44,267 bases of DNA from Acidobacteriota bacterium (GCA_021790995.1 JAJYFA010000014.1:1-44267); one strand, 5' to 3'; numbered from the stretch's first letter, positions 1-19,086 are shown. A program made the numbers and translations. Notes: a model not told the origin generated them from the letters alone.

Positions 1-75
1 CTGAAGGCGGCGAACCCGCTGGGGATATTGCGGCAGATCGACGGCGTGTTTACCCGTGAGCCGCTCCAGAAATAG
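1..75 (+). CDS. C-terminal fragment of a truncated CDS (…LKAANPLGILRQIDGVFTREPLQK*), product unknown
   Basis: Open frame 1 from the window edge to TAG at 73-75; family not recognisable from 24 residues. Confidence 0.4.
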   Translation: MKAANPLGILRQIDGVFTREPLQK

Positions 76-147
76 ATACTTGCCGCGGCAAACAACAAGG
101 GCAGCCTCTCAACGACGGGCTGCCCCTGTTTCTGTTCTGCGCGGCGG

Positions 148-891
148 TTACCAGCTTCCGCGCTCACCGAACATTTCAATCACGCGTTCCAGGCGTGTGC
201 AGCCGTTTTCCCAATTCGCGCAGAGCGCGCGCTCCAGGCGGTCGGGGTCTCCGTTGAGTAGCGCCGCGATAATCTCTTCGTGTTCCTTCACGGAAGTCTT
301 CAGCTCGCCGATGATGGAGCTGGCATAGAGGCGCCAGTAGCGTTCCGTTTGCGGCTCGATGGCACGGTGCAGAGCGACCAGGCGTGGCCCTGCGCCCGCC
401 GCAATCAGCAGGCGATGAAACTCGTGGTCGAGATCGAAGATCTTTGGCCCACCCAGGCTCCGGTCGTTCGCGATGGTGGCCAGTTCTTCATTGATCCGCT
501 CCAGCTTGCCCGCCAGTTCCTTGCGCTCCGCCAGCGGCAACGCAGCCGTGCGCCGCCCGGCAAGCCCCTCGATGCGTCCGATCATGGGATACAGCTCACC
601 GGCATCCTCTTTGGTCAGCGGCGCAACAACCATGCGCGACTTGCTGCCGTTGCGAACTTCGTGCACGTACCCTTCGCGGTGCAGCAGGTAGAGCGCGCCG
701 CGCACCGGCGTGCGGCTCATGTTCAGGTGCTCGCACAGATCGCTCTCCACGATCCAGCTCCCCGGCGCCAGCTTGCCGTGAACGATCAAATCGCGAATCT
801 GCTGGAAAGCCAGCCCCACGCTGGTTCCGTGCTCGGCTTTCGCGGCGCGCTTCTTCGAACCGCGAACCGCCCTCGTGGCTGCGCTTTCCAT
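148..891 (-). CDS. GntR family transcriptional regulator, FCD domain (paralog A)
   Basis: N-terminal wHTH (AFQQIRDLIVHGKLAPGSWIVESDLCEHLNMSRTPVRGALYLL) followed by FCD helices (DLDHEFHRLL, EHEEI). Start at MESAATR chosen by alignment to the paralog at 13672. Confidence 0.92.
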   Translation of the reverse strand: MESAATRAVRGSKKRAAKAEHGTSVGLAFQQIRDLIVHGKLAPGSWIVESDLCEHLNMSRTPVRGALYLLHREGYVHEVRNGSKSRMVVAPLTKEDAGELYPMIGRIEGLAGRRTAALPLAERKELAGKLERINEELATIANDRSLGGPKIFDLDHEFHRLLIAAGAGPRLVALHRAIEPQTERYWRLYASSIIGELKTSVKEHEEIIAALLNGDPDRLERALCANWENGCTRLERVIEMFGERGSW

Positions 892-1055
892 GGTCTTCAC
901 TCTTTCGTTCCCGGGCCTGGACCTTGCGGCCTTCGCGCGCCGTGCTCTTTCCGGGCTATGCAGAATGTTGGAATCGCCCGTTCCAGGCGCTATCTTGCGT
1001 CTCACTTAGGATACATCTTTGCACTTTTGCCCGGTTCTGCTTCTGCCGCGCGGGT

Positions 1056-3050
1056 TTACGCGTCGATGCGCCGCAGGTAGACCGAGTAGCGCTCGTCCAT
1101 GATCTGATTGAGCGGAACCAGCGTGTGGCGAGGACCGCGGCCCTTGGTGTGAAAGCGCAGGCCATAGCGAGGCGACGCTTCAGCCTGCTCGAACCAGACG
1201 TCATCGGCGACGGCCGGCGGCGCCTGGCTGCTTTGGCCGTGGTGCATGGGGGGACGCAGGTCGACGGCGGGCATTGGATAGCCGTCGTCGAATCCGCTGG
1301 GACCACTGCCGCCATAGATCATCGAGGTAGTCAGCCCTTCGGTTCCGAGTAGCGCGGCCAGCACCAGAGGACCGTACATGGCGGTCTGCACATTCTTGTC
1401 GTCAGGCGTAGTGCCGAGGTGCGGCGTGAGAGGCATTTCGACGGTGACGAGGTCGCCGGTTTTCCAGGTGCGGTCGAGCGTGAGATAGGTCGAGGGCGCG
1501 GCGGCGACGTTCTGCAATGCGCCGTTCACGCTCACCTTGACGCCCTTGGCCGCCCAGTAGGGAACGCGAATCCTGAGCGCCGTGGGTTGAGTGGGCGCGG
1601 CATCGAACTTGAGCGCGATGCGATCGTCCTGCGGAAGATCGGTAGTGAGGCGCAGTTTGAGGCCGCGCTCGTTCCAGTCGAGCGTGGAGGGGATGAAGAG
1701 GTTGACGAACAGCGACGACTCGTCGTGAAAGTAGATCGAGTCGGTGAGCTTGGAGTACTCCTCGCAGCCCGTGCCGGTGCAGCACCAGAAGGCGTCGAAG
1801 GGCGTACCAAAGGTCTTGTACATGCCTGGCTCCAGCGGCACGTAGTACATCAACATGCCGTTGCGGTCCTGCGTGCCGTAGCGGACGTTGTAGAGCAGCC
1901 GCTCATAGTAGTCGAAAAACTTCGGGTCGGGATTCTGGCCATAGAGATGGCGCGTGAGCTTCATCATGTTGTAGCTGCAGCAGCACTCCTCGGCCGCGGG
2001 GCCAAGCTGAGAGGCGATGGCGTCGGGGGCGTGCCACATCTCGCCGTTGCTGGTACCGCCGGTGCAATAGATGTGATGCCCGGTGAGGATGCCGTAGAAG
2101 TTCTCGCTGATCTTCCGGTAGCGATCGTCGGCCGTGAGCTCGTAGCCGCGGGCCGCTCCAATCACCTTGGGAATGTTGGTATTGGCGTGGTTGTGGTCGA
2201 GGATGTCCTTGTCGTCCGCCAGGGGATCGAGGATGCGGCGATGCTCGAAGCGGAACCCAAGGTCGCGGTACTTCGTGCTGCCGGTGATGGCGTAGAGATT
2301 GAAGGCCGACTCCATCATGCCGCCCTGTTCGACGTTGAGCACGCTCTGCCAGTCGGCATCGGTGAAGGAAGCCGAATAAGCCGCGGCCCAGTCGGCCATG
2401 CGCGTGGCCATCTCAAGCGCCTGCCGGTTGCCGGTGTGCTCGTACATGTCGATGAGGCCGGCCATGATTTTGTGATAGGTGTAAAAGGGCGCCCATACGC
2501 GCTCGTGCTTGCGCAGGCGCTCAAAGTACGAGACGGGGAAGGCGCTCAGATAGCCGTCTTTCTGCTGGCACTCGGCGAGCATGACGACGAGTTCCTCGGC
2601 TTTGGCGCGAATGAAGTTGTCGCCGGTGCTGGCGTGCATCAGGGCGCAGGATGACATGTAGTGGCCGACGTAGTGACCGCGCAGCTCGCAGTCGGGCGCC
2701 TCCCATCCGCCCAGCGGATCTGCGTCGGACGCAATGCCGGCGTTGACGCGAAAGTTATGCGCCAGCCGCTCGTTGGGCAGCGAGTAGAGATAACTGCGGT
2801 TGAGCTCCATCATGTCTTTCCAGAAGCTGGGCAGCAGACGTACATCGGGCATCGGAAACGGCTCGGCCTTCCATTGCACTCTGGCAACCTTGGAGTGGAC
2901 GAGATCCTGGTTGGCAACGTCCTCCGAGCCTGCCGAGGACTGGCTCGCGCGGGCAGCGTCAAGCGCCACCGCGGGATGAGCAAGCAAAGTGGCTGTACTG
3001 GCGGCAACTGCGCCGCCGAGAAACTTCCTTCGATTGAAGCTGGAATCCAT
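1056..3050 (-). CDS. DUF1680 glycoside hydrolase (GH127/GH146-type beta-L-arabinofuranosidase), Tat-exported
   Basis: Tat signal RRKFLGGAVAAS; family motifs CTGGTSNGEMW, ECCCSYNMMKLTRHLY, DYYERLLYN, FWCCTGTGCEEYSKL. Confidence 0.88.
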   Translation of the reverse strand: MDSSFNRRKFLGGAVAASTATLLAHPAVALDAARASQSSAGSEDVANQDLVHSKVARVQWKAEPFPMPDVRLLPSFWKDMMELNRSYLYSLPNERLAHNFRVNAGIASDADPLGGWEAPDCELRGHYVGHYMSSCALMHASTGDNFIRAKAEELVVMLAECQQKDGYLSAFPVSYFERLRKHERVWAPFYTYHKIMAGLIDMYEHTGNRQALEMATRMADWAAAYSASFTDADWQSVLNVEQGGMMESAFNLYAITGSTKYRDLGFRFEHRRILDPLADDKDILDHNHANTNIPKVIGAARGYELTADDRYRKISENFYGILTGHHIYCTGGTSNGEMWHAPDAIASQLGPAAEECCCSYNMMKLTRHLYGQNPDPKFFDYYERLLYNVRYGTQDRNGMLMYYVPLEPGMYKTFGTPFDAFWCCTGTGCEEYSKLTDSIYFHDESSLFVNLFIPSTLDWNERGLKLRLTTDLPQDDRIALKFDAAPTQPTALRIRVPYWAAKGVKVSVNGALQNVAAAPSTYLTLDRTWKTGDLVTVEMPLTPHLGTTPDDKNVQTAMYGPLVLAALLGTEGLTTSMIYGGSGPSGFDDGYPMPAVDLRPPMHHGQSSQAPPAVADDVWFEQAEASPRYGLRFHTKGRGPRHTLVPLNQIMDERYSVYLRRIDA

Positions 3051-3132
3051 GACGTTACCTCGTGAGGCCGGCCGAAAAGCCTGCCGGAACCTCTTGCTGT
3101 TGATTGAGCATTGACAACCGATCGTTGACCAC

Positions 3133-4905
3133 TTAGGGATGGGTCGGATGATCGCCGTAAAACTTCCACTGGCTAGTGTAATCGCTAACCAACTTCAGGT
3201 TCTCGATATCGGCGCGCAGCAGTTCGACGGGCATGTTGTTCTCGTGCAGAATGGCGTCGTGAAACTGGCGATCGGTCATCTTTCCCGAGTCGACCAATTC
3301 GTGGTGCATCGCGCGAAATTGTAACGCGCCGAGCAAATAGGCGCTCTGGTAAAGCGGCCCAACCGATCCGTCGAAGGCGCGGCGCACCTCGGCAGCGGCG
3401 TTATCGGGCTCGAAATCCACCTTGTCGATCAGATACTGGACGCATTGTTGCGGCGTCCAGCGGCCAAGATGGAAGTTCATGGTGAAAACGATGCGCGCCG
3501 AGCGGTGCATACGCCAGGCCAGCGCGCCGATACGTTCCTCTGGCGTCTTGTCGAAGCCCTTGTCCCAGAACAGCATTTCCCACCAGAAGGCGTTACCTTC
3601 GGTCCAGAACGGCGTGTCAAAGATCTGCCGGTATGGCCGGTAGCGCTGCTGCATGTAGAACTGCAGGAAGTGGCCAGGTATCATTTCGTGAAAGGCCGTG
3701 GCGTGCGCGAAAGGAATATTGTTGCCCCTCATGCTCATCTCGCGCTGCTCGTAGGTCATGGTGTTGGTGGGGTAAGAGACGCTGATCTCGTCGCCGCCGG
3801 TGAAGAAGGGATTTACGAGCTGCCGCTCAGGCGTCATCATGGTCATGCGCCAGGTCTCGTCGGCTAGCGGCGGCACGGTCACCAGGTTGTTGTCCTTCGC
3901 AAAGTCGCTGCCCTCGATGACCAGCTTGCGGATCAGGTCCGGCTGCTCACCGGGCGGTACGTGCATCTGCTTCACTTTTTCAACCGCAGCGCGCCAGTCG
4001 TCGCCGTAGCCCATCTCGCGCGAGGCTTTGAGCATTTCTTTCATGCACCAGTCATACTCGGTTTCGGCGATAGCGATCAGCTCCTCGGGTGTGTAAGGAA
4101 TCATATTGTCGGCGAGTTCCTGATGAAGTGCTTCGCGGCCGACAGGATCGCCGAGAATCGTCGTCGTGTCGCCCGGTGCGATACCGGCCAGCTTTTCCCG
4201 CAGAAATCCCGCGTAATTCTTCAATGACTCCTGAGCAGCGTTGTATGGCATTTTGACCCACCAGGTGAACTGGGGATCATAGCCGTCGTACTGCTCGAAC
4301 CACTTCTGCAGATTCCTGCTCAACTCCTCGGTAGCCATCGCCGCCCGGTTGGCGACTACGGCATCGAACTTCGCTTTGTCTGTCGTCGACCCAGGCAGCA
4401 CTGCGGCTGCGCGACCATGATCGAGTTGCGCGCGGAGAAGCTTGATTTGCCGCACCATGTCGCTCAGCGCCTTCGCATCCTGCTCCGCATCGGGGTGCTG
4501 CATCAGACGCTTCTTCGCTAACAATCCCTCGATGACCGGAGCAAAGGGCAGCAACGGAGCCATCTCGTTCACCCGCTGTTTTCTAAGGGCTAGTTGGTGC
4601 TTTTGGCTACGTACGTAGTTGCGAAGCAATAGGTAATCGATCTGATCTTCGTGTGAAAGCGTGATGAAGTCGATCGCCGCCAGATTGGCTTCAGTTGCAG
4701 CATAGAATCTTTCCAGTCGCTTGCTGCGATCCGGAGAGATCGCAACCCGGTAAGTGCTGTCGATCGCGTACAGATCTGCCGAGAACTCCCGAATCATCTG
4801 CGGCATTTGTGGAGCGGGCTGGGCCGCCAGAGGAAAACTGCAGAACAAGCAAATTGCGGCGGCAAAACTGCCAAGGATGCCAACAAACCGCGCGAAGATT
4901 CCCAT
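3133..4905 (-). CDS. DUF885 family putative zinc metallopeptidase, secreted
   Basis: N-terminal signal peptide; HEMIPGH motif in ATAFHEMIPGHFLQFYMQQRY; overall DUF885 pattern (EGWxxY-like FWTEGNAFWWEMLFWDKG). Confidence 0.85.
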   Translation of the reverse strand: MGIFARFVGILGSFAAAICLFCSFPLAAQPAPQMPQMIREFSADLYAIDSTYRVAISPDRSKRLERFYAATEANLAAIDFITLSHEDQIDYLLLRNYVRSQKHQLALRKQRVNEMAPLLPFAPVIEGLLAKKRLMQHPDAEQDAKALSDMVRQIKLLRAQLDHGRAAAVLPGSTTDKAKFDAVVANRAAMATEELSRNLQKWFEQYDGYDPQFTWWVKMPYNAAQESLKNYAGFLREKLAGIAPGDTTTILGDPVGREALHQELADNMIPYTPEELIAIAETEYDWCMKEMLKASREMGYGDDWRAAVEKVKQMHVPPGEQPDLIRKLVIEGSDFAKDNNLVTVPPLADETWRMTMMTPERQLVNPFFTGGDEISVSYPTNTMTYEQREMSMRGNNIPFAHATAFHEMIPGHFLQFYMQQRYRPYRQIFDTPFWTEGNAFWWEMLFWDKGFDKTPEERIGALAWRMHRSARIVFTMNFHLGRWTPQQCVQYLIDKVDFEPDNAAAEVRRAFDGSVGPLYQSAYLLGALQFRAMHHELVDSGKMTDRQFHDAILHENNMPVELLRADIENLKLVSDYTSQWKFYGDHPTHP

Positions 4906-4980
4906 CGATTCCTCCCGTGTGGATAAGACGATAGAGATAAGCTCAGCATTGATCGGACCCCGCCAGGGACATGGATTGAG

Positions 4981-5013
4981 TTATACAACAAGAGAATAAT
5001 GAATACAACATCG
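4981..5013. promoter_or_regulatory. Candidate GntR operator: direct half-sites TTATACAAC (4981-4989) and GAATACAAC (5001-5009)
   Basis: 20-bp spaced direct repeat in the divergent promoter region between the DUF885 gene and the dehydrogenase genes. Confidence 0.5.
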
Positions 5014-5119
5014 TATTTCTGTTTTGGCAAACTCTCCTACCCGGCTTCGCAGTGGTGAAATAGCCGTGATCTGGTAAAGCTCCGGAGAACGCAAGGAGGA
5101 AGATTTGCAGATGCTGATA

Positions 5120-5131
5120 TACAAAATTGTA
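5120..5131. promoter_or_regulatory. Candidate operator TACAA-AA-TTGTA
   Basis: 5-bp inverted repeat with 2-bp spacer, just upstream of the 2Fe-2S subunit gene. Confidence 0.45.
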
Positions 5132-5211
5132 CACATTGGCTGAGTCGGGTTATGATCTCTGCTATACGTGCGGCGATCGCTGCCATTCAGGCGGCAAGCG
5201 TGCGGGAGAAG

Positions 5212-5460
5212 ATGTTGGCGGACAGGAAGATTTCGCTCACCGTGAACGGCAAGCCTGTCGAAGTGGCGGCCGGAACGAGTGTCGCCGCGGCGGTGATGAT
5301 GGCTGGTGAGCCGTCCCGGTTTTCGGTTACTGGCGAAGCGCGCGCGCCGCTCTGCGGCATGGGCATCTGCATGGAGTGCCGGATGACGGTCGATGGCGTG
5401 CCGCAGCGGCGCGGCTGCCAGTTGTTGTGTGCCGACGGCATGGAGGTGCAATCGTCGTGA
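5212..5460 (+). CDS. 2Fe-2S ferredoxin-like subunit of an amino-acid/opine-type dehydrogenase (HcnA / hydroxyproline dehydrogenase gamma-like)
   Basis: Plant-type 2Fe-2S ligand pattern CGMGICMEC…C. Alternative start at 5152 in the same frame. Stop overlaps the next gene by 4 nt (GTGA). Confidence 0.85.
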   Translation: MLADRKISLTVNGKPVEVAAGTSVAAAVMMAGEPSRFSVTGEARAPLCGMGICMECRMTVDGVPQRRGCQLLCADGMEVQSS

Positions 5461-6749
5461 GGGCACGCTTTGATGTTGTAGTGGTTGGCGCCGGTCCGGG
5501 TGGAATTGCTGCCGCAGCGGTCGCTGCCGCTGCAGGTATGCGCGTCTGTCTGTTGGACGCGAATCCTGGCTTGGGCGGACAGGTGTGGCGCGGCATCGGC
5601 GCGGGGACGGCGCGCTCCTATCCGCACGGAGGCAAGTTCGTGCGCTGGAAGGCGCGGCTCGATGCGTCTGGGTGCGAGGTCTGGCAGGGCTGGCAGGTTG
5701 TGGACGCGCCGAAGCAGCGGCTGCTGCGTGTGGAGTCGGATGTCGAGAGTAGGGAGATTGAATTCGTGCACCTGATTCTGGCGACGGGAGCGCGGGAGCG
5801 ATTCCTGCCGTTTCCAGGATGGACGCTGCCGGGCGTGATGGGCGTTGGCGGCGCGCAGGCAATGGTGAAATCAGGGCTCGATGCGAGCGGCAAGCGTGTT
5901 GTTGTGGCGGGCAGTGGTCCACTGCTGCTGGCCGTTGCCGCGGGCCTGGCCAAAGCCGGCGCGACGATCGAAGGCGTCTTTGAGCAGGCAACCCGAGCGC
6001 AGATGGCGCCGTTTGTCTTGTCCGCACTCGCTGCGCAACCTGGCAAATTGATTGAAGGCGCACTCTACCGATTATGGACGTTCGGCGTTCCCTATCGCTT
6101 CGACTCGTGGGTAAGGCGTGCGGAGGGACACGCGCGCGTGGAACGCGTGTGGGTGAGCATTGGCGGTAAAGAACGCGCCATCGCCTGCGACTGGCTGGCG
6201 TGCGGATTCCATCTTGTGCCGAACTTGGAGCTGCCGCGGCTGCTGGGATGCCAGATCCTGGCTGGTTGCGTGAAGGTGGACGCGTTGCAGCAGAGTTCCG
6301 TCGAGGGTGTGGCCTGCGTGGGCGAACTGACCGGAATTGGCGGACTCGAAAAAGCACTGCACGAAGGCGAGATTGCCGGATGGGCGGCGGTGGGCAATCA
6401 GGCGCGAGCACTTTCGCTCGCCAGCCGGCGAAGAAGGCAGTTGGAATTTGCGGCACGCATGGAGCGAGCGTTCGCGTTGAGGCCGGAGCTGCGCCGGCTG
6501 CCGACCGATTCCACGATCGTTTGCCGCTGTGAAGACGTCACGCACAAAGAACTAGCCGCATGCGAAGGCTGGCGCGAGGCCAAGCTGCACTCCCGTTGCG
6601 GTATGGGTTCGTGCCAGGGGCGCATCTGTGGCGGTGCGGCGGAGTTCTTGTACGGATGGGGTCCGAAGGACGCCCGGCCGCCGGTTTATCCAACCAAAGT
6701 TGCAACCCTGGCCGCCGAGACCGACACGGCGGATAGGGCAAGCCGCTGA
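5457..6749 (+). CDS. NAD(P)/FAD-dependent oxidoreductase with C-terminal BFD-like [2Fe-2S] domain (HcnB / D-hydroxyproline dehydrogenase alpha-like)
   Basis: GTG start at 5457 overlapping the upstream stop; FAD motif VVVVGAGPGGIAAA; NAD motif VVVAGSGPLLLAVA; C-terminal CRCEDVT…CGMGSCQGRICG cluster. Confidence 0.88.
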   Translation: MRARFDVVVVGAGPGGIAAAAVAAAAGMRVCLLDANPGLGGQVWRGIGAGTARSYPHGGKFVRWKARLDASGCEVWQGWQVVDAPKQRLLRVESDVESREIEFVHLILATGARERFLPFPGWTLPGVMGVGGAQAMVKSGLDASGKRVVVAGSGPLLLAVAAGLAKAGATIEGVFEQATRAQMAPFVLSALAAQPGKLIEGALYRLWTFGVPYRFDSWVRRAEGHARVERVWVSIGGKERAIACDWLACGFHLVPNLELPRLLGCQILAGCVKVDALQQSSVEGVACVGELTGIGGLEKALHEGEIAGWAAVGNQARALSLASRRRRQLEFAARMERAFALRPELRRLPTDSTIVCRCEDVTHKELAACEGWREAKLHSRCGMGSCQGRICGGAAEFLYGWGPKDARPPVYPTKVATLAAETDTADRASR

Positions 6750-6797
6750 AGGCATAGCGCGCTTCAGCGTATATCACTTTCGAAAGGAAGCTCCGCG

Positions 6798-9185
6798 ATG
6801 CTGCCGTTCCAGTTCAAGAGAGGCAATGCTTTGTCTTTCCGTTTTACATGGCTGAAGGTACCCCAACTGCATCTTGTGGCTGCTGTGCTCTTGTTGGCGC
6901 CACTGCCTGCCCGAATTGCAGCACAGCCAGCGCCGGCCGACTATGAACGAGCTCTCGACATCAACCAGAAGTATCACGATCTCGTAGATCATCTGCCTGG
7001 TCCGGTGCGCTGGATCGAGGGAACCGACCGCTTCGTCTACCGCAGGGCAATTCCCGGAGGTTACGAGTTTGTCGAGGTGAATGCCCAGACCCAAACCTCA
7101 AGGCCGGCCTTCGACCACACGCGGCTGGCCGCCGTGCTGAGCAAGGCGATGGGAGAAGAGATCAAACCTGAAGAATTGCCGTTTCAGGATCTGCGTCTCG
7201 ATAAGGATGGCAAAACCTTTCGCTTTTTGCGAGGACGCGCCTTCTGGCGCTGCGACCTCGCGGCATACACCTGCGAGAAGGCGCCGCCGCGCGAGGGCTT
7301 CGATCTTTCCGCCGACGATGACGGCGGATACGACTCTACGCCCAAGGCCATCAACGGCGCTGCTCGCGGCGTCAAATCGCCCGACGGTAAATGGCTGGCG
7401 TTTGTAGAAAACTACAACCTCGCCGTGCGGCCGGCAGACGGCAAGCCCGGCGCTGCCGAGAAGCAAACCGCGATCCTGAGCCAGGACGGGTCAGAAGGAA
7501 ACTATTACTCGGTCGATACCATCGCCTGGTCGCCCGACTCGAAGCACGTGTTGGTTTGCCGCATCCGGCCGGGTTACCGGCGTTTGATCCATTACGTCGA
7601 ATCCTCGCCTGCCGACCAGTTGCAACCGGAGTCTTCGACGATGGTATACCCCAAGCCGGGTGATGTACTCCCGCTCTTTCAGCCGGTGCTGTTTCAAATT
7701 GACGCGAAGCAGGAAGTGCCGATCGGTAATGCGCTCTTCCCCAACCCCTACGAGCTGACGAACTTCGCCTGGCGCAAGGACTCGCACGCCTTCACCTTTG
7801 AGTACAACCAGCGCGGCCACCAGGTCTATCGCGCGATCGAGGTGGATGCGGCCAGCGGCAAGGCGCGTGCGCTCATCGAGGAGACCAGCCGTACCTTCAT
7901 CAACTACGAACCGCTCACACCCGGCCAGTACGACCACGGCAAATACTTCCGCCACGATGTCGCCGACGGCAAGGAGATCGTCTGGGCCTCGGAGCGCGAC
8001 GGATGGGAGCATCTCTATCTCTTCAACGGCCAGACAGGCGCGATGGAGCGCCAGATTACGCGCGGCGACTGGGTGGTGCGCGCGGTCGATCGCGTCGACG
8101 AGGCCCATCGCGAGATCTACTTCGAGGCCAGCGGCATGAATCCCGGCGAAGACCCGTACTACGTGCATGGATACAAGATCGGCTTCGACGGCACGGGGCT
8201 AACGCCGCTTAGTCCGGAAGAGGCAGATCACGCGCTGAGCTACTCCTCCGACGGCAAGTACTACGTAGACAGCTACTCGCGCCTCGATCTGCCGCCGGTG
8301 ATGGAACTGCGACGCTCGTCTGACGCGAGTCTGGTGATGACGGTGGACAAGGCCGACGATGCGCGACTGGTTGCGGCAGGTTGGAAACCGGCTGAGCCCT
8401 TCCACGCAAAAGGACGCGACGGCAAAACCGACATTTGGGGCGTTATCTGGCGGCCTGCCAACTTCGACCCCAGTAAAAAGTACCCGGTTGTCGAAGATAT
8501 TTACGCGGGCCCCCAGGGCTCGTTTGTGCCCAAAGACTTTACCCCGCGCGTTGAGCCGCTGACGGAACTCGGATTCGTTGTGGCGCAGATCGACGGCATG
8601 GGTACCAATAACCGCTCCCGCGCCTTCCACGATGTAGCCTGGCGCAACCTGAAGGACGCCGGGTTTCCCGATCGCATCCTCTGGCACAAAGCCGTCGCGG
8701 CCAGATATTCGTGGTACGACATCTCCCGAGGTGTCGGCATCTTTGGCACCTCGGCTGGTGGGCAGAGCGCCATGGGCGCGCTGCTCTTTCATCCGGAGTT
8801 CTACACCGTCGCTGTGGCCAATTCCGGCAGCCACGACAACCGCATGGACAAGATCTGGTGGAACGAGCAATGGATGGGCTGGCCCGTGGGGCCTTGGTAC
8901 TCCGAGTCGTCGAATGTGGACAACGCCTGGCGGCTCAAGGGCAAGCTGCTGCTGGTCATGGGCGAGATGGATAAGAACGTCGATCCCTCGACAACGCTCC
9001 AGGTCGTCGACCGCCTCATCAAGTCGGGCAAGGACTTCGATTTCCTTGAAGTGCCAGGTGGCGGCCACGGCGCTGGAGGCCGCTACGGCGAGCGCCGGCT
9101 CATGGACTTCTTCGTCCGCAACCTGATGGGCGAACCGGCACCGGACTGGAACAAGCTGCCCTGGACGGCAGGGAAATTGCGGTAG
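6798..9185 (+). CDS. S9 family (DPP-IV-like) serine peptidase, secreted
   Basis: Signal peptide; DPPIV N-terminal beta-propeller; nucleophile motif [19 protein letters not shown] Asp and GGGHGAGG His. Confidence 0.92.
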
Positions 9186-9299
9186 AGAGTGGAAGCCGCA
9201 TTCCCGGTCTGTTTATAAGGCGCAGATTCAATAGGGCTTCCGTAAGACGATGTGCCACGGGCGCGCCAAGAAAAGTTTTTTGCAAAAACCACTTGCAAA

Positions 9300-9340
9300 G
9301 AATACAACATCGGATTCATAATCCTACGCTAGGTTGTATT
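9300..9340. promoter_or_regulatory. Candidate GntR operator: inverted half-sites AATACAAC (9301-9308) and GTTGTATT (9333-9340)
   Basis: 8-bp inverted repeat with starts 32 bp apart; GAATACAACATCG (9300-9312) is identical to 5001-5013. Confidence 0.5.
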
Positions 9341-9358
9341 GAGAATGCGTTTACTCGG

Positions 9359-9364
9359 TATAAA
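9359..9364 (+). promoter_or_regulatory. Candidate -10 element (TATAAA) of the TonB-dependent receptor gene
   Basis: TATAAA 19 bp downstream of TTGTAT (9334-9339); the upstream hexamer overlaps an operator half-site. Confidence 0.3.
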
Positions 9365-9586
9365 AATTCGCAGCCGGCAGAATTTGGCTAGCAGGGCGGA
9401 AATCGCGGGCATGCGGGAGTAATCGCCGGCGGTCCTCTACTGCTCCGTTCGCCCGTCTGCAACTGGCGCATCAGGTACGGGGACGATGAGATGTTCGCTT
9501 TTACTTAACCGGTGGCCAGGTTGTGCTTACGGCACGGACCCGACGGAACCACAGTCGACATGAAGTAGTTCACAAGGAGAGGCGCA

Positions 9587-12500
9587 ATGATGAAATTCAC
9601 CTGCATTTCGAAATGGATCGCTGGCGCTGCGATTGCATGTGGCTTATACACAGTCGCAACGCGGACTGCATTAGCTCAGGATCTGTCAACCGGGGCTCTG
9701 AATGTGACTGTGCAGGACAGCACAGGAGCAGCTATCAACGGCGTGCAAGTGGCCCTGAAGAATCAAGGCACTAACGACATGCACAAAGCCACAACCGGCG
9801 GTATCGGCAACGTGGTCATTTCCTACCTGAATCCCGCGCGGTACAGTTTGACGGTTACCAAGGACGGGTTCCAGACCAAGGTATATCCTTCGGTGACAAT
9901 CCAAGCCAATCAGGTAACCGATCTGACTGTCACATTGGATGTGGGCAGCGCGGCGCTAAGCGTTACAGTTTCGGCGGAGAACAGCCCCCTTCTTGACACC
10001 ACCTCAAATACCCTCGCGACAACCGTAGATTTAAAGCAGGTGGATGAATTGCCGCTGGGAGGCCGCGATGCGTTCGGCCTGGCCTTTCTGGTTCCTGGCG
10101 CAGTGGACGACAACTTTAACAATCTGCCAGGTGGAGCGGTCGATGTCGGCGCCAACGGCTTTTCAACCATGACGAATCGCTTTAAGAGCGGAGGCTTCGA
10201 TACGAATGGATCATCGACCACAAACCGCCTGGAAGATGTCCAGGAGATGACGGTACAAACCGGCGAACTAGACGCCAGCCATGGCGGCACCAGCGTCATG
10301 GACATCGGATTCGTCACCCGGAGCGGTACCAACCAGTATCACGGCCAACTCTATGAGGATTACCGCAGCGGCGGCCTGAACGCCAATAGCTGGTACAACA
10401 ACAACGTCGACCAGCCGCGCGCGTCTATGGTTAAAAACGACTTCGGTGGCAGCGTCGGCGGCCCGATTTTGAAGGACAAGCTCTTCTTTTTCGCAAGTCT
10501 TGCGAACTTTCGCCAACCATCGAATTACACGGCTTCGACCGTGGTAGGAAACGCCAATGCGCTGGCCGGGATTTATGCGTATGTTCCCGCGGGTTCTTCG
10601 ACCACGCAGACGGTTAACGTGTTGCAGGCGGGAGCCGGCGCCGGATGCCCGACATGCACAGGAGCAATCAACTCGCTGATTGCCACCGACCTGGCGAATG
10701 CGGAGTCCACGTATTCCACGCCCAGCCAATATGACGTCAGCTACACAAAGGGTTATGATCTAAACCACGATTTGATCAGTTTTCCTGTACGCGGTTATAT
10801 TCTGAATAAGTTCCCCACCCTGCGCCTCGACTATAACTATTCCCAGCGCTTGCGGTTTACAGGATCGGTGAACGAGAGCAGCTTTTACAACCTCAATACG
10901 GGTGCTCCGCCTTACCCCGGTCCTCTCTATGCCGATATGACCGGCAGCACCTTCTCCAGGAACTACCAGGTTGTGGCCGGCTTTGACTGGGACGTCAAAT
11001 CGAATCTGGTGAATGCTTTTCGCGTCGGCTATCTCTACACAGGTTTTACGTATAACTCGGGAGGCATGAACTCCCCAACCGCCGCCATGATGCAGCAGGG
11101 CGATCTCGCTTTCGGCTTTAATTTGAATAGTGGAGTGAACGGTTTTGCTCAACTCAAAGGCGGATCCCTCTATCCAGTTCTGAGCGTGAAGGACGACGTA
11201 ACCTGGCAACACGGCAGACATACCGTTATCTTCGGTGTGCAGAGTGCGACCGAAATCGACCACTACTATAACAACCAGTTTGTGCCGTACATCGGCGTGA
11301 ACTATATTATCTCGGGCGACCCAGTGCAGAGTGCGCTGGACAGCTCACTCGTCAACCCTCCAAGTTATGCAACCGGCGATGTAGAGGGTCTCTACGCCAC
11401 GCTGACCGGCCGCATGACTTATTACAGCCTGGGTGAGTTTCTAAATGCGAGTACAAAGCAGTTTCAGCCAGGAATTTCCTTCAATCTCCACGAGCGGCTG
11501 AATCAGACCGCACTGTTTGTCGAGGACTCTTGGCGGCTGAGACCATCACTCACGGTCAACGCGGGATTGCGCTGGGATTTTACAGGCGCATCGAAGGATG
11601 AAACAGGATTCTATACTCATCCAACCATTCCGAATCTGTGGGGTCCGACCGCGGTGGGCAGCATCTTCGATCCGGGATCGCTGGGCGGGCTGTCGAACCC
11701 CTATGAGGGGCCGGCGGCGGAAGCTTATGCTCCAACATACGTCCATCCCGAGCCGAACGTCGGTATCGCATGGAATCCCACCACAAAGCCTGGTTCTGTC
11801 CTCCACAGATTTCTGGGCAGCGGGGCAACGGTCATTCGCGCAAGTTATACTTTCAAAAACTATACCGAGGGCGCGCAGAACTTCTGGAACTTTGGCTCCA
11901 ATAATGGCGCTAATTTCAACACGTATTTGTACGCCAATGCGGTTGCTCCCTCCGGCACAACTCCAGGCCCCGGTTTTTACAATGCAGGAACGGTGACTCT
12001 CGGGAACACACCAGCTTCGTCGCAGCTCGCTTCGACCTCGCCAATCCCCTATCAACCGAAAATCTACGAATCAACACAAGCCTTTAGCGGCACCGAATTC
12101 CTTACTTTCGATCCGCATATCAAGCAGCCCTATGTCGAGTCCTGGGAGGTGGGCGTCGAACGCCAGTTGAGCCCAAACAATGTCCTGGAAGTGCGCTATG
12201 TGGGTAATGTGGCCCGCGACCAATGGATGCCCTACAACTACAACGAGATCAACATCTTCGAAAATGGCTTTCTGAAGGACTTCCAGGCAGCGCAAGCCAA
12301 TCTGCAAACCAACGGCGGAACGACCTTTAAGGGGCCTCTGCCCACCCCTATCCTCGATGCAGCCTTTGCCTCTACCGGTGGCGCAGGCTACACCGACGGT
12401 GGCTTTATCACCGATCTCCAACAGGGGCAGGCGGGAGCTTTTGCCTCTACGCTGGCAGGCAGTCCCACGTACCTTTGCTCCATGGTGACCGGCTTCAATG

Positions 12501-13417
12501 GTCCCTGCCAGGCGGTGAACGGCACGAACTCCAGCGGCCCTTATCCCATTAACTTTTTCCAGGTGAATCCTTACGCCACCGGAACGGGCATTCTGGAAAT
12601 GACAAATGCCGGGTACTCTAACTACAATGCGCTGCAGGTCGACTTCAGACAGAAGCTCAATCATGGCATGCAGTTCGACGCCAACTACACCTGGTCGCAC
12701 TCACTGGGAACCAGCGTTCAGGGGAGTGTAACTCCAGGGTTTTACGGCGGCAGGTCCAACAGCGCACCAGGGTTCTATACCCTGCGTAACACACATCTGA
12801 ACTACTTCCCGAGCGCATTCGACGTCCGGCAGGTTTTCCACCTGAGCGGCACCTACGATCTGCCGTTCGGTCATCATCAGCAGTTCTTCAATCAGAACCC
12901 GATCGCAAATTCCGTGATTGGAGGTTGGACGGCGGGCGTAATTCTTACCCGCCAGACAGGTGAGCCCTACCTGTTTTACGGCGGAACAAGCACCGTCAAT
13001 CAGAGCGACTCTGGCATTACGCTTACAGGTGTGACGCCATCCCAATTACAGAAACAGATCAAGGTTCGTCCAGGTACCCCCGGAACAGGCCGGGTCAACC
13101 TATTCGATCCCAAGTACTATTCTTCCTCAGGCACATCCAGCACCAACTACATCAGCCCAAACTTCACCGCTGGACAGTTTGGCACGCTGATGTGGCTGCA
13201 CGGTCCTAAGTGGATCAATACCGATCTGGCGGTCACCAAACTCGTTCCGATTCACAACGAGATGAACTTCACTCTGCAGGCGGAATTTCTGAATGCCTTT
13301 AACCATCCGGCTTGGATCGGCATGGATTCGGGGGTACAAGATACGACGTTCGGGACGACATCCAGTACAGCGAACGCTCCGCGTAACATTGAACTGCGTG
13401 CGAATTTTCGCTTCTAA
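9587..13417 (+). CDS. TonB-dependent receptor with N-terminal carboxypeptidase regulatory-like domain (Oar-like)
   Basis: RBS AAGGAG; CarboxypepD_reg repeat (GALNVTVQDSTGAAINGVQVAL); plug and barrel features; C-terminal aromatic residue (…IELRANFRF). Confidence 0.93.
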   Translation: MMKFTCISKWIAGAAIACGLYTVATRTALAQDLSTGALNVTVQDSTGAAINGVQVALKNQGTNDMHKATTGGIGNVVISYLNPARYSLTVTKDGFQTKVYPSVTIQANQVTDLTVTLDVGSAALSVTVSAENSPLLDTTSNTLATTVDLKQVDELPLGGRDAFGLAFLVPGAVDDNFNNLPGGAVDVGANGFSTMTNRFKSGGFDTNGSSTTNRLEDVQEMTVQTGELDASHGGTSVMDIGFVTRSGTNQYHGQLYEDYRSGGLNANSWYNNNVDQPRASMVKNDFGGSVGGPILKDKLFFFASLANFRQPSNYTASTVVGNANALAGIYAYVPAGSSTTQTVNVLQAGAGAGCPTCTGAINSLIATDLANAESTYSTPSQYDVSYTKGYDLNHDLISFPVRGYILNKFPTLRLDYNYSQRLRFTGSVNESSFYNLNTGAPPYPGPLYADMTGSTFSRNYQVVAGFDWDVKSNLVNAFRVGYLYTGFTYNSGGMNSPTAAMMQQGDLAFGFNLNSGVNGFAQLKGGSLYPVLSVKDDVTWQHGRHTVIFGVQSATEIDHYYNNQFVPYIGVNYIISGDPVQSALDSSLVNPPSYATGDVEGLYATLTGRMTYYSLGEFLNASTKQFQPGISFNLHERLNQTALFVEDSWRLRPSLTVNAGLRWDFTGASKDETGFYTHPTIPNLWGPTAVGSIFDPGSLGGLSNPYEGPAAEAYAPTYVHPEPNVGIAWNPTTKPGSVLHRFLGSGATVIRASYTFKNYTEGAQNFWNFGSNNGANFNTYLYANAVAPSGTTPGPGFYNAGTVTLGNTPASSQLASTSPIPYQPKIYESTQAFSGTEFLTFDPHIKQPYVESWEVGVERQLSPNNVLEVRYVGNVARDQWMPYNYNEINIFENGFLKDFQAAQANLQTNGGTTFKGPLPTPILDAAFASTGGAGYTDGGFITDLQQGQAGAFASTLAGSPTYLCSMVTGFNGPCQAVNGTNSSGPYPINFFQVNPYATGTGILEMTNAGYSNYNALQVDFRQKLNHGMQFDANYTWSHSLGTSVQGSVTPGFYGGRSNSAPGFYTLRNTHLNYFPSAFDVRQVFHLSGTYDLPFGHHQQFFNQNPIANSVIGGWTAGVILTRQTGEPYLFYGGTSTVNQSDSGITLTGVTPSQLQKQIKVRPGTPGTGRVNLFDPKYYSSSGTSSTNYISPNFTAGQFGTLMWLHGPKWINTDLAVTKLVPIHNEMNFTLQAEFLNAFNHPAWIGMDSGVQDTTFGTTSSTANAPRNIELRANFRF

Positions 13418-13431
13418 TTCAAAACCCCACA

Positions 13432-13466
13432 TGCAGCCGCTGGCTCTTAAGCGAGCCGCGGCTGCA
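13432..13466 (+). terminator. Strong stem-loop after the TonB-dependent receptor gene
   Basis: TGCAGCCGCTGGCTC-ttaagc-GAGCCGCGGCTGCA, near-perfect 14-15 bp stem, no clear U tract. Confidence 0.5.
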
Positions 13467-13671
13467 CAACAATCGGCAAGCTGAAATCTTCACCCGCCGG
13501 GCTCAGCAAATTAATGCTCTATCAGTGGCTTTTCTAAGGCTGCGCAGCAGAAGGACGCATACGGAGCCGAGCCTGAAAGCGGCCACATGGCGCATCGGTT
13601 CTCGAAAAGTGAAGGGTGCGTAAAGTTCACGACCCACCAACGACCACGCTTTTGCCAAAGAGCACGAAACA

Positions 13672-14415
13672 ATGGAATCGACAGTTTTCGGGAGAACGCG
13701 TAGTGCGAAGGCATCAGTTGACAGGGCCGAATACGGCGACAGCGCGGGGAAGGCGTTTCAACAGATACGCGATTTGATTGTTCACGGCAGGCTCGCGCCA
13801 GGAAGCTGGATTGTGGAAAGCGACTTGTGCGAGCATCTACGGATGAGCAGGACGCCGGTGCGGGGTGCGCTCTACCTGCTGGAGCGCGAAGGCTACGTGC
13901 GCGAGCGCCGCAACGGTAGCAAAGCGAAGATGTTCGTCGCGCCGCTGACCAAAGAGGATGCCGGCGAGTTGTACTCGATGATCGGGCGCATTGAAGGACT
14001 GGCCGGAAGGCGCGCGGCACAATTGCCAAGAGCAGTGCGAAAGAATCTCGCAGGAAAACTAACTGACATTAATCTGAAACTCGATAAAATCGCGTGTGAA
14101 CAAGGCTGCGATGGTCCGGCAATCTTCGATCTCGACCACGAGTTTCATCGTCTGCTCGTCGATGCAGGATTGGGACCCCGGCTGAAAATGATGCATCGTG
14201 CGGTCGAGCCGCAGGCAGAGCGCTATTGGCGTTTGTATGCCAGCTCGATTATGCATCAGCTTCACGTTTCGGTAGCAGAACATGAGGAAATCGTTGCCGT
14301 GCTCCTCAAAGGCGATCCGAACCAGCTTGACCGGGCACTCTGTGTCAACTGGGAAAACGGTTGCACACGCTTGGCTGCGGTCATCGATCGATTCGGTGAG
14401 CGCGGCAGTTGGTAA
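13672..14415 (+). CDS. GntR family transcriptional regulator, FCD domain (paralog B)
   Basis: Very similar to the regulator at 148-891 over the whole length; both end in FGERGSW. Confidence 0.92.
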   Translation: MESTVFGRTRSAKASVDRAEYGDSAGKAFQQIRDLIVHGRLAPGSWIVESDLCEHLRMSRTPVRGALYLLEREGYVRERRNGSKAKMFVAPLTKEDAGELYSMIGRIEGLAGRRAAQLPRAVRKNLAGKLTDINLKLDKIACEQGCDGPAIFDLDHEFHRLLVDAGLGPRLKMMHRAVEPQAERYWRLYASSIMHQLHVSVAEHEEIVAVLLKGDPNQLDRALCVNWENGCTRLAAVIDRFGERGSW

Positions 14416-14518
14416 AAAGCAAGGCTGGCGTCGCTGTGTGGAATTAACGAACTGAATCAGCCGCCGAGGGTGACAGTATTTTCCTCCGTGGCAGAATAGA
14501 AAATCGCATGGAGGATTC

Positions 14519-17311: not shown

Positions 17312-17490
17312 TCTGGAGCGCGGCAAGAAGTTTTCTGGCACCTGCGGAATCAGCCGCGCCCCTCTGCGCCCTGCGAAGCCGCGCTCGGGAGCTTCTGAGA
17401 ACCGGTAACGGCTCATCGTGGATGCCGACCAGGAGACGGGCGGCGTGAGCCCGCTTTTGCCTAGCCAGTTCACCTCGCCGCTGAAGCTGC

Positions 17491-19086
17491 TCAAACCTCC
17501 GCCACTTCAGATCCGTCTTCCAGGTGGCCGTTCCGTTTCGCTCTCCGCGTCCAAAAGAGATATACGGGAATCCCCATCAGAACAAGAACCAGACCCGGCC
17601 AGGTGTACTGCGGCTTATAGCGCAGCAGCGCGAGGCAGGTTCCCGAGGCCAGTACGATGTAGAGCGCAGGCAGCCACGGATAGCCAAAGGCCTTGTAAGG
17701 ACGTTCCGCATCGGGCTGTCTCCGGCGCAACACAAATAATCCCGCGATGGTCAGGATATAAAACAAAAGCACCGCGAAGATGATGTAGTCGAGCAGTTGG
17801 CTATAGGACCCCGAAACGCAGAGCATAACCGACCAGATGGCTTGGATGGACAGTCCCGCGGCGGGCGTTTTGAACTTAGGGTGCAGCCGGCCTACGCTGC
17901 GGAAGAACAACCGATCGCGGCTCATCGCATAATAAACCCGTGCGCCGGCCAGGCTCAGTCCGTTGGCGCAGCCAAAGGTTGAGACCAGGATCGCCGCAGC
18001 CATCAGATAGCCGCCTACGCGAGGAAAAATCTGCGTCAGCGCCGCCGTGCCCACGCGGTCTTCAGTGGCGTACTGAATTCCCCGCGCCAGGACGGTCGCG
18101 CCGTGTGGGTCTCCTTGGAGTGGCAGGATCATCAGGTAGGCCGCGCTGGCGAAGAAGTAAGCAGTCAGCACGAATCCCGTGCCCAGCGCCAGTGACAGCG
18201 GAATGTTACGCCGCGGGTTTCTGGTTTCACCCGCGGTAAACGTCACGTTGTTCCAGGAATCGGAAGAGAATAGCGAGCCTACCTGCACCACGGCCAGAAT
18301 CGTCAGCAGGCCTACCATCACGGTTGGTCCGCCGGCACCCACCTGGACAGGGTGCAGCGCCTGCCAGTTGGCATTCCTCCAGAAGTTTGCCCAGTGATGC
18401 CCGAAGTTTGCTTCCACGGCCGCGGAATTGCGCCCAACGGTGAATCCCAGCAGAACCAGCGCCGCCAGTGACGCAGCCTTAGCCACTGTGAAGACATTTT
18501 GCACCAATGCGCCCAGCTTGACGCCCAGTACGTTCAGCGCGGCAAGCACCAACACGACCGAGGCTCCTACCAGGTTTGCCGTGTTCACTCCTATTTCTAT
18601 ATTGCCCAGCGCTATGGGCCCGACGCGAATCGCGGGCACATGCGCGATATGCCAGAGCCAATGTGTGCTCGAAATCGAAGGAAAGAAGACGCCCGAGAAC
18701 TTGCCGAACGCTACACACACCGCGGCGATCGAACCGGTCTGGATCACGATAAAAAATGTCCAGCCGTACAGGAATCCCCAGAGCGGCCCCAGCGATTCGC
18801 GCAGGTAAACATATTGCCCGCCGGCATTGGGCATTAGGGCCGCCAGTTCGCCGTAACTCAGCGCCCCAATCATCGTCATCACCGCGGTGATCGCCCAGGC
18901 CGCCAGAAACAACGCTGGAGAATCTGTGGCGCGGGCAATGTCGCAGTCGACGATGTAGATGCCGCTGCCCACCATGGAGCCGATAACCAGCGCGGTGGCG
19001 CTGAACAGGCCGAGGCTCCGCGTCAATTCGATGGGAGCTTCTCCTCTTTGTTCGGTGGTCGATTCTACCTGTACCGGCACTGCCAT
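17491..19086 (-). CDS. APC family amino-acid permease
   Basis: Multi-pass protein with APC motifs (GSMVGSGIYIVDCDIA, GALSYGELAALMPNAGGQYVYLRE). Confidence 0.9.
   Translation of the reverse strand: MAVPVQVESTTEQRGEAPIELTRSLGLFSATALVIGSMVGSGIYIVDCDIARATDSPALFLAAWAITAVMTMIGALSYGELAALMPNAGGQYVYLRESLGPLWGFLYGWTFFIVIQTGSIAAVCVAFGKFSGVFFPSISSTHWLWHIAHVPAIRVGPIALGNIEIGVNTANLVGASVVLVLAALNVLGVKLGALVQNVFTVAKAASLAALVLLGFTVGRNSAAVEANFGHHWANFWRNANWQALHPVQVGAGGPTVMVGLLTILAVVQVGSLFSSDSWNNVTFTAGETRNPRRNIPLSLALGTGFVLTAYFFASAAYLMILPLQGDPHGATVLARGIQYATEDRVGTAALTQIFPRVGGYLMAAAILVSTFGCANGLSLAGARVYYAMSRDRLFFRSVGRLHPKFKTPAAGLSIQAIWSVMLCVSGSYSQLLDYIIFAVLLFYILTIAGLFVLRRRQPDAERPYKAFGYPWLPALYIVLASGTCLALLRYKPQYTWPGLVLVLMGIPVYLFWTRRAKRNGHLEDGSEVAEV

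What the first reader, a model, noticed from the sequence alone, without database searches (positions are those of the whole stretch)
148..19086. Candidate utilization locus for arabinosylated hydroxyproline-rich glycoprotein (extensin-like)
Seen directly: a Tat-exported DUF1680 enzyme, a DUF885 peptidase, a DPP-IV-like peptidase, a 2Fe-2S + FAD/BFD dehydrogenase pair, an Oar-like TonB receptor, a secreted DUF5695 protein, an APC permease and two FCD regulators lie together. Established: GH127 (HypBA1 of Bifidobacterium longum) removes beta-L-arabinofuranose from Hyp-linked arabino-oligosaccharides; DPP-IV cleaves after X-Pro; D-hydroxyproline dehydrogenases use 2Fe-2S plus FAD/BFD subunits. 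Inference: sugar removal, peptide cleavage at Pro/Hyp and imino-acid oxidation are combined in one polysaccharide-utilization-like locus acting on plant wall HRGPs. I am not aware of such a locus being described for this phylum, but could not search.
Basis: partly seen in the sequence, partly recalled or inferred. Interest (0 to 1): 0.75.

Follow-up and report, generated by a model that had tools for sequence, protein, structure and literature searches.

The report
Plant hydroxyproline-glycoprotein utilization locus in Acidobacteriota
This soil bacterium, like several relatives, groups the enzymes predicted to strip sugars from plant hydroxyproline-rich glycoproteins and cut up their peptides with the complete pathway that burns the released hydroxyproline, so one locus could consume both the sugar and the protein half of a plant wall glycoprotein.

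Summary
The window is a whole contig. A 3.4-kb contig of the same genome overlaps its left end by an exact 127 bp; it carries the DAO-like subunit of D-hydroxyproline dehydrogenase (3' part), a DapA-type deaminase and the alpha-ketoglutarate-semialdehyde dehydrogenase whose last codons are window bases 1-75. A third contig (286-bp overlap, 99%) adds hydroxyproline epimerase. So a complete trans-4-hydroxyproline pathway abuts secreted DUF1680 glycosidase, DUF885, DPP-IV-like peptidase, DUF5695, Oar-type receptor, APC permease and two FCD regulators. The set recurs with shuffled order in other Acidobacteriota, sometimes all within 20 kb and with GH27 and GH43 added. Two corrections: the DUF1680 enzyme is GH146-like rather than GH127, and DUF5695 is a remote homologue of PL27 rhamnose-glucuronate lyase, which acts on arabinogalactan proteins (best fold match, and the only profile hit in the PDB). 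The substrate is therefore more likely AGP-type, or AGP plus extensin, than extensin alone. Enzyme activities, substrate and regulation are inferred. Closest analogues: Colwellia collagen cluster, Streptomyces HypR regulon, Bifidobacterium/Xanthomonas Hyp-arabinoside enzymes. New variant of a known kind.

The parts
1..75 (+). 3' end (last 24 codons and stop) of alpha-ketoglutarate-semialdehyde dehydrogenase; the rest is on own contig C211:1772-3361 (locus L180), which overlaps window 1-127 exactly
   Evidence: exact 127-bp contig overlap; Aldedh 167.7 bits; homologous to the ALDH of 13 relative Hyp loci
148..1005 (-). GntR/FCD (FadR-type) regulator 1
   Evidence: PF07729 62.6 bits, PF00392 39.9 bits
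1056..3050 (-). Tat-exported GH146-like beta-L-arabinofuranosidase candidate (DUF1680); Zn ligands E355, C357, C423, C424 by alignment
   Evidence: PF07944 390 bits; best PDB relatives are GH146 5opj and 8k7x/8k7y
3133..4905 (-). secreted DUF885 putative metallopeptidase
   Evidence: PF05960 166 bits; divergently adjacent to the 2Fe-2S/FAD-BFD pair in about 8 genus members
5002..5017 (.). operator-like site AATACAACATCGTATT
   Evidence: AATACAACATCG is intergenic only here and at 9301; the other three exact genome copies are in RND-pump coding sequence
5117..5132 (.). operator-like site ATATACAAAATTGTAC (palindrome TACAAAATTGTA) before the 2Fe-2S gene
   Evidence: conserved at the same place in L039, L044, L059, in part in L040, L049, L051; ATACAA/TTGTAT 29 observed vs 4.0 in shuffles, max 11
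5152..5460 (+). 2Fe-2S subunit of D-hydroxyproline dehydrogenase
   Evidence: ORF with CGMGICMEC...C motif; paired with FAD/BFD in 39 of 40 relative loci
5457..6749 (+). FAD/BFD subunit of D-hydroxyproline dehydrogenase
   Evidence: PF07992 82 bits; orthologues in 46/149 relatives, most beside DAO, DapA and epimerase genes
6798..9185 (+). secreted S9 (DPP-IV / prolyl tripeptidyl peptidase-like) peptidase
   Evidence: PF00930 165 bits, PF00326 140 bits; best PDB hit 2d5l, then bacterial DPP-IV
9301..9340 (.). operator-like inverted repeat AATACAAC-N24-GTTGTATT upstream of the receptor
   Evidence: sequence and pattern search
9587..13417 (+). Oar-type TonB-dependent outer-membrane receptor
   Evidence: PF25183 405 bits, PF13620 63 bits
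13672..14415 (+). GntR/FCD regulator 2
   Evidence: PF07729 50 bits, PF00392 43 bits; same order DPPIV-OAR-FCD-DUF5695 in L157
14519..17311 (+). secreted DUF5695 protein, PL27-like fold (beta-sandwich, (alpha/alpha) barrel, beta-sandwich)
   Evidence: PF18951 1276 bits; AF2 pLDDT 89, pTM 0.90; Foldseek best hit 5nok/5no8, E 1e-30, TMt 0.83; profile HMM hits only 5no8, E 2.9e-24
17491..19086 (-). APC amino-acid permease, candidate Hyp/amino-acid uptake
   Evidence: PF13520 179 bits; APC permeases recur in L043, L063, L089, L094, L116, L163, L164, L221, L222

Best explanation
The locus is a utilization locus for plant hydroxyproline-rich glycoprotein in an Acidobacteriota soil bacterium, most likely for arabinogalactan-protein-type HRGP (extensin-type not excluded). 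Proposed working: secreted enzymes uncap and trim the O-glycans, with the DUF5695 PL27-like enzyme removing Rha-GlcA or related caps and the GH146-like enzyme removing beta-L-arabinofuranose (GH27 and GH43 help in sister loci). DUF885 and the proline-specific S9 peptidase cut the exposed Pro/Hyp peptides. The Oar-type receptor and APC permease import products. trans-4-Hydroxy-L-proline is epimerized, oxidized by the three-subunit D-Hyp dehydrogenase (DAO + 2Fe-2S + FAD/BFD), deaminated by the DapA-type enzyme and oxidized by KGSA dehydrogenase to alpha-ketoglutarate. FCD repressors acting on ATACAA/TTGTAT sites would switch the set on. Shown here: gene content, contiguity, conservation of the association, fold and profile homology of DUF5695, conserved operator-like sites. 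Inferred: all enzyme activities, the substrate, the regulation.
For: Complete Hyp pathway contiguous with the window: C211 overlaps window 1-127 exactly and carries DAO 3' part, DapA and KGSADH; C253 overlaps C211 over 286 bp at 98.95% inside DAO and carries the epimerase. The epimerase is nearest the solved epimerase-type chains 4jbd/4j9w (418 bits) and the NCBIfam 4-Hyp-epimerase models (418.6 bits, cut-off 442). Conserved set: L116 Granulicella has DUF885, DPPIV, FCD, epimerase, DAO, 2Fe-2S, FAD/BFD, DapA, GH27, DUF5695, GH43, GH146-like and APC within 21 kb; L220 has GH146-like, DPPIV, DUF5695, GH27, Hyp genes, GH43 and OAR within 20 kb; L219, L221, L222, L211, L089 and L094 similar. G021 splits the same set over two contigs (L038, L158). 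Genus co-occurrence with FAD/BFD: DPPIV 12/13 P=5e-6, DUF885 12/15 P=1e-4, GH 10/12 P=3e-4, DUF5695 7/8 P=2e-3. Independent DUF5695-first search: 5 of 15 loci outside the genus carry the Hyp pathway. DUF5695-PL27 homology by two methods.
Against: No biochemical or growth evidence. GH146 members act on several substrates (Araf-beta1-Hyp, beta1,3-Araf of AGP, RG-I arabinan: PMC10850190), so sequence alone does not fix the sugar. DUF1680 and DUF5695 homologues also occur without Hyp genes, and the DUF5695-FAD/BFD linkage within the 149 relatives is weak (1/7, P=0.05). DUF885 has no proven activity. GH27 and GH43 are not in the window. Association P values ignore phylogenetic relatedness. The C253-C211 join rests on a 286-bp overlap with 3 mismatches.
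Confidence: 0.74

Rival explanations
1. A Hyp (and general amino-acid/peptide) catabolic locus fed by free Hyp or protein fragments. The DUF1680 and DUF5695 genes next to it serve ordinary pectin/arabinan degradation and are neighbours only because these genomes are rich in glycosidases.
For: DUF1680 genes occur in 56/149 relatives, mostly unlinked to FAD/BFD; other GH families (92, 97, 31, 35, 13) also sit near some Hyp loci; BT0349, the nearest solved relative, belongs to an RG-I locus (PMC10850190).
Against: The same GH146-like, DUF5695, DPPIV and DUF885 families recur with the Hyp pathway in rearranged orders across genera and families, including from a DUF5695-first search; the APC and FCD genes travel with both halves.
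Confidence: 0.15
2. The substrate is specifically arabinosylated extensin (the first reader's version; a sub-case of the best explanation, so its share overlaps with it): GH146 removes Araf from Hyp, GH43 the terminal alpha-1,3-Araf of Ara4-Hyp, GH27 the alpha-Gal on Ser.
For: Characterized GH146 members XeHypBA1 and Bll4HypBA1 act on Araf-beta1-Hyp (PMC6085000, PMC10850190); GH43 acts on Ara4-Hyp in Xanthomonas (PMC6085000); GH27 and GH43 genes in L116, L219, L220.
Against: DUF5695 is homologous to PL27, which removes the Rha-GlcA cap of arabinogalactan proteins, a motif I do not know from extensin (PMC8377490). No GH121 arabinobiosidase partner was noticed (not searched for directly).
Confidence: 0.25
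3. A collagen/gelatin (animal Hyp) utilization locus like that of Colwellia BB5.
For: Same coupling of proline-specific peptidases, TonB receptor and Hyp catabolism (PMC7883544); best PDB relative of the S9 peptidase is the 2d5l aminopeptidase.
Against: No M9 collagenase above the family cut-off in the own genome (best 23.0 vs cut-off 26 bits); plant-type glycosidases and a PL27-like enzyme instead.
Confidence: 0.06

Closest known systems
trans-4-hydroxy-L-proline catabolic operon (epimerase, three-subunit D-Hyp dehydrogenase, Pyr4H2C deaminase, KGSA dehydrogenase; Watanabe 2012, GNN in PMC4113996, subunits in PMC5144071)
   Same: all enzyme families present and contiguous; DAO/2Fe-2S/FAD-BFD triple as in the alpha4beta4gamma4 P. 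aeruginosa enzyme
   Different: split into two transcription units around a GH146-like gene, peptidases and a receptor; in the proteobacterial loci seen here no such genes were found beside the operon
Colwellia BB5 collagen-utilization cluster (PMC7883544)
   Same: polymer-degrading enzymes, proline-specific peptidases, TonB receptor and Hyp catabolism in one ~21-kb cluster
   Different: M9 collagenase and prolyl isomerases there; glycosidase and PL27-like enzyme here; different phylum and predicted substrate
HypR regulon of Streptomyces coelicolor (PMC6608401)
   Same: FCD (FadR-type) repressor controlling Hyp catabolism together with polymer-degrading enzymes
   Different: operator motif differs (TACAATGTCAC); collagen is the proposed polymer there
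HypBA1/HypBA2/HypAA of Bifidobacterium longum and Xanthomonas euvesicatoria (PMC6085000, PMC10850190)
   Same: GH127/GH146 beta-L-arabinofuranosidases; a putative prolyl oligopeptidase gene lies beside xehypAA
   Different: the passages read describe no coupling to Hyp catabolism; GH121 is part of those systems
PL27 L-rhamnose-alpha-1,4-D-glucuronate lyase BACCELL_00875 (PDB 5no8/5nok; PMC8377490)
   Same: DUF5695 shares the beta-sandwich plus (alpha/alpha)6 fold and is detectable by profile
   Different: about 14% identity, larger, with an added C-terminal beta-sandwich; activity unknown

Membership tests
trans-4-Hyp catabolic pathway locus | 4-hydroxyproline 2-epimerase with catalytic Cys pair | tested here: met
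   C253:598-1572 has MCGHG and SPCGTG motifs; 418.6 bits to NF010577 (cut-off 442, just below); PDB 4jbd 418 bits
trans-4-Hyp catabolic pathway locus | D-Hyp dehydrogenase: DAO-like beta, 2Fe-2S and FAD/BFD subunits | tested here: met
   DAO on C253/C211 (PF01266 128.7 bits); 2Fe-2S and FAD/BFD in window; about three quarters of the relative loci carry all three
trans-4-Hyp catabolic pathway locus | DHDPS-type deaminase and aldehyde dehydrogenase in the same cluster | tested here: met
   C211 DapA (PF00701 192 bits) and ALDH (PF00171 168 bits)
trans-4-Hyp catabolic pathway locus | enzymatic activity on Hyp and its intermediates | not testable with these tools
   needs assays or growth tests
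GH127 (HypBA1) | closest sequence relatives are GH127 | tested here: not met
   GH127 4qjy 67.6 bits against 336.5 for GH146 BT0349
GH146 | closest to characterized GH146; Cys3-Glu zinc site | tested here: met
   5opj 336 bits, 8k7y 182 bits; E355, C357, C423, C424 by alignment; no tree with all GH146/GH127 members was built
GH146 | beta-L-arabinofuranosidase activity | not testable with these tools
   needs assay
PL27 | fold and detectable sequence homology to PL27 | tested here: met
   Foldseek E 1e-30, TMt 0.83; only PDB profile hit, E 2.9e-24
PL27 | family-level sequence similarity and conserved catalytic residues | tested here: inconclusive
   about 14% identity; R553, Y557 and Y724 are invariant in the 39-sequence alignment and align with the same residues of 5no8, but the PL27 catalytic residues could not be read (paper not held); not filed as PL27
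FCD regulator of Hyp genes (HypR type) | FadR-type FCD protein with conserved operator at Hyp genes | tested here: inconclusive
   two FCD genes; conserved ATACAA/TTGTAT sites; binding and effector untested
collagen-utilization cluster | M9 collagenase | tested here: not met
   no match over cut-off in own genome

The most novel reading that the evidence does not exclude
DUF5695 founds a new carbohydrate-active enzyme family, PL27-related (lyase or glycosidase), that uncaps Hyp-linked glycans, within a phylum-wide Acidobacteriota locus type that consumes both the glycan and the hydroxyproline of plant HRGPs.
Probability: 0.45. Interest if true: 0.72.

Novelty: new variant of a known kind. Interest (0 to 1): 0.6.

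Why it matters
Hydroxyproline-rich glycoproteins (extensins, arabinogalactan proteins) are a large plant-derived pool of carbon and nitrogen in soil, and who degrades their protein part is poorly known. This locus would give Acidobacteriota, a dominant soil phylum, a defined and testable route that uses the sugar and the imino acid together. It also offers a function for DUF5695 and DUF885, two unassigned families.

Tried and rejected
Genome-wide AATACAACATCG search to find further regulon members: the three extra exact hits are in RND-pump coding sequence, so no further targets were found. HypBA1/GH127 assignment rejected in favour of GH146. Collagen reading tested by M9 search and not supported. 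First DUF5695 model with 11 close homologues was poor (pLDDT 55) and discarded; 39 diverse sequences gave pLDDT 89. Other Foldseek hits (GH94, GH116, GH127, rank 3 downward, TM mostly below about 0.35 for whole-length enzymes) are weaker and only reflect the shared barrel. The recurrent ~750-aa family next to DUF5695/GH146 gave no Pfam match and is absent from the own genome. No Rfam family or tRNA in the window. The 2017 PL27 paper is not held.

Full report
OBSERVATION. The window is a whole contig (C31) of a 4.15-Mb, 263-contig genome. It is Acidobacteriota: a genome of the same genus (G012) carries the sequence of record JAGWSG010000232.1, Acidobacteriota bacterium REEB344. The 2Fe-2S gene (5152-5460) and the FAD gene (5457-6749, with a C-terminal CxC...CxxxxC motif) overlap by 4 bp.

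WHAT LIES LEFT OF THE WINDOW. They do. Window bases 1-75 encode ...LKAANPLGILRQIDGVFTREPLQK*, the C-terminus of an aldehyde dehydrogenase found in 13 relative Hyp loci. Contig C211 (3413 bp, L180) ends with the first 127 bases of the window exactly, a typical assembler k-mer overlap. It carries DAO (3' 276 codons), a DapA-type protein (80% identical to that of the closest relative's Hyp cluster) and the complete aldehyde dehydrogenase. Contig C253 overlaps the other end of C211 for 286 bp with 3 mismatches inside the DAO gene and carries the 5' part of DAO and the only proline-racemase-superfamily gene of the genome. Its protein has both catalytic cysteine motifs and is closest to epimerase-type solved structures. 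Gene order is therefore epimerase, DAO, DapA, KGSADH (+); FCD, GH146-like, DUF885 (-); 2Fe-2S, FAD/BFD, DPPIV, Oar, FCD, DUF5695 (+); APC (-).

CONSERVATION. The FAD/BFD protein has an orthologue in 46 of 149 relatives. In 40 neighbourhoods it is preceded by the 2Fe-2S gene in 39 and accompanied by DAO and DapA in about 31 each, epimerase in 27 and KGSADH in 13; contig ends limit these counts. In the window's genus the degradative genes join: DUF885 in 10 loci, Oar 7, FCD 7, DPPIV 6, GH146-like 5. Gene-by-gene searches give co-occurrence with FAD/BFD within the genus (Fisher P 5e-6 to 2e-3) and physical linkage. P values treat genomes as independent and overstate significance. They are backed by rearranged gene orders: L116 (Granulicella clean406), L094 (Granulicella S156), L089, L158+L038 (closest relative), L219, L220, L221, L222 and L211. 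L220 packs GH146-like, DPPIV, DUF5695, GH27, DapA, FAD/BFD, 2Fe-2S, DAO, epimerase, GH43 and OAR in 20 kb. A search that started from DUF5695 across the phylum (28 of 396 genomes positive) found Hyp genes beside 5 of 15 DUF5695 genes outside the genus and DUF1680 genes beside 7. A planctomycete (L083, Sedimentisphaerales) has a 46% identical DPPIV and a protein with an alpha-galactosidase C-terminal domain beside its Hyp operon.

WHAT THE DEGRADATIVE PROTEINS ARE. The DUF1680 protein resembles GH146 (BT0349 336 bits, Bll3HypBA1 181 bits) far more than GH127 (68 bits or less) and keeps the Glu-Cys-Cys-Cys zinc site. GH146 has members acting on Araf-beta1-Hyp (Bll4HypBA1, XeHypBA1), on beta1,3-Araf of arabinogalactan proteins (Bll3HypBA1) and on RG-I (BT0349) (PMC10850190, PMC6085000). 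The S9 peptidase is closest to solved bacterial prolyl tripeptidyl/dipeptidyl peptidases and keeps Ser, Asp and His in the alignment (naming of 2d5l as prolyl tripeptidyl aminopeptidase is from memory). DUF885 is a putative metallopeptidase. DUF5695 had no PDB relative by single sequence. With 39 diverse sequences AlphaFold2 gave pLDDT 89 and pTM 0.90. Foldseek's best hits are 5nok/5no8, the PL27 L-rhamnose-alpha-1,4-D-glucuronate lyase BACCELL_00875 (E 1e-30, TM 0.83 on the target), with everything else 20 orders of magnitude weaker. Independently, the profile of the same alignment finds 5no8 and nothing else in the PDB (E 2.9e-24, three collinear stretches). PL27 releases rhamnose from gum arabic and other arabinogalactan proteins (PMC8377490). 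AGPs are hydroxyproline-rich glycoproteins, so this is an independent pointer to the same class of substrate, and towards AGP rather than extensin. GH27 and GH43 enzymes in sister loci and a GH51-like alpha-L-arabinofuranosidase in L217 fit either glycan.

REGULATION. Palindromic ATACAA/TTGTAT sites lie before the 2Fe-2S and Oar genes and recur in orthologous intergenic regions (29 against 4.0 in shuffles, maximum 11). FadR-type FCD proteins regulate Hyp genes in Streptomyces (HypR; PMC6608401). That the FCD proteins here bind these sites is inference.

MECHANISM AND CONFIDENCE. The Hyp pathway assignment is nearly certain as gene content (about 0.95). The functional coupling of peptidases and glycan enzymes with Hyp catabolism is likely (about 0.85). 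Plant HRGP as the substrate class is the best explanation (about 0.74), AGP-type more likely than extensin alone. No activity has been shown here.

RELATION TO KNOWN SYSTEMS. Genome-wide inference of HRGP use has been made for Latescibacteria (PMC4454575), whose retrieved passages describe GH127 and AGP enzymes but no Hyp locus. Coupling of a polymer to Hyp catabolism in one cluster is known for collagen in Colwellia (PMC7883544). I found no paper describing the plant-HRGP version or DUF5695's function, within an open-licence library that lacks most subscription journals. Hence: new variant of a known kind.

Noticed in passing
L038:3607-5838(-), L116:1-2108(-), L161:3772-5985(-), L160:10271-12562(+), L164:9507-11855(+), L157:14865-16000(+): A ~750-aa protein family without Pfam match (N-terminus VEGHS/T...) recurs beside GH146-like, DUF5695 and DPPIV genes in relatives but is absent from the window's genome; candidate further HRGP-acting enzyme.
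   Followed up: partly
own genome C128:21715-23388; L162:2610-6101; L219:11871-15053: A second, divergent DUF5695 subfamily (about 23-26% identity to the window protein) is widespread in the phylum and sits beside the first type in some genomes.
   Followed up: partly
L022 (C253) 1858-9487: Next to the epimerase lie a large protein with a weak GH2 sugar-binding match, an AXE1-like esterase and an OPT oligopeptide transporter.
   Followed up: partly
C253 1-286 and C211 1-286: Three mismatches in a 286-bp contig overlap inside the DAO gene suggest strain variation broke the assembly.
   Followed up: yes
L083: A planctomycete (Sedimentisphaerales) Hyp operon also has a DPPIV homologue (46%) and an alpha-galactosidase-like gene beside it.
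   Followed up: partly
window 20167-22563: SNF2-type helicase of unknown role right of the locus.
   Followed up: no
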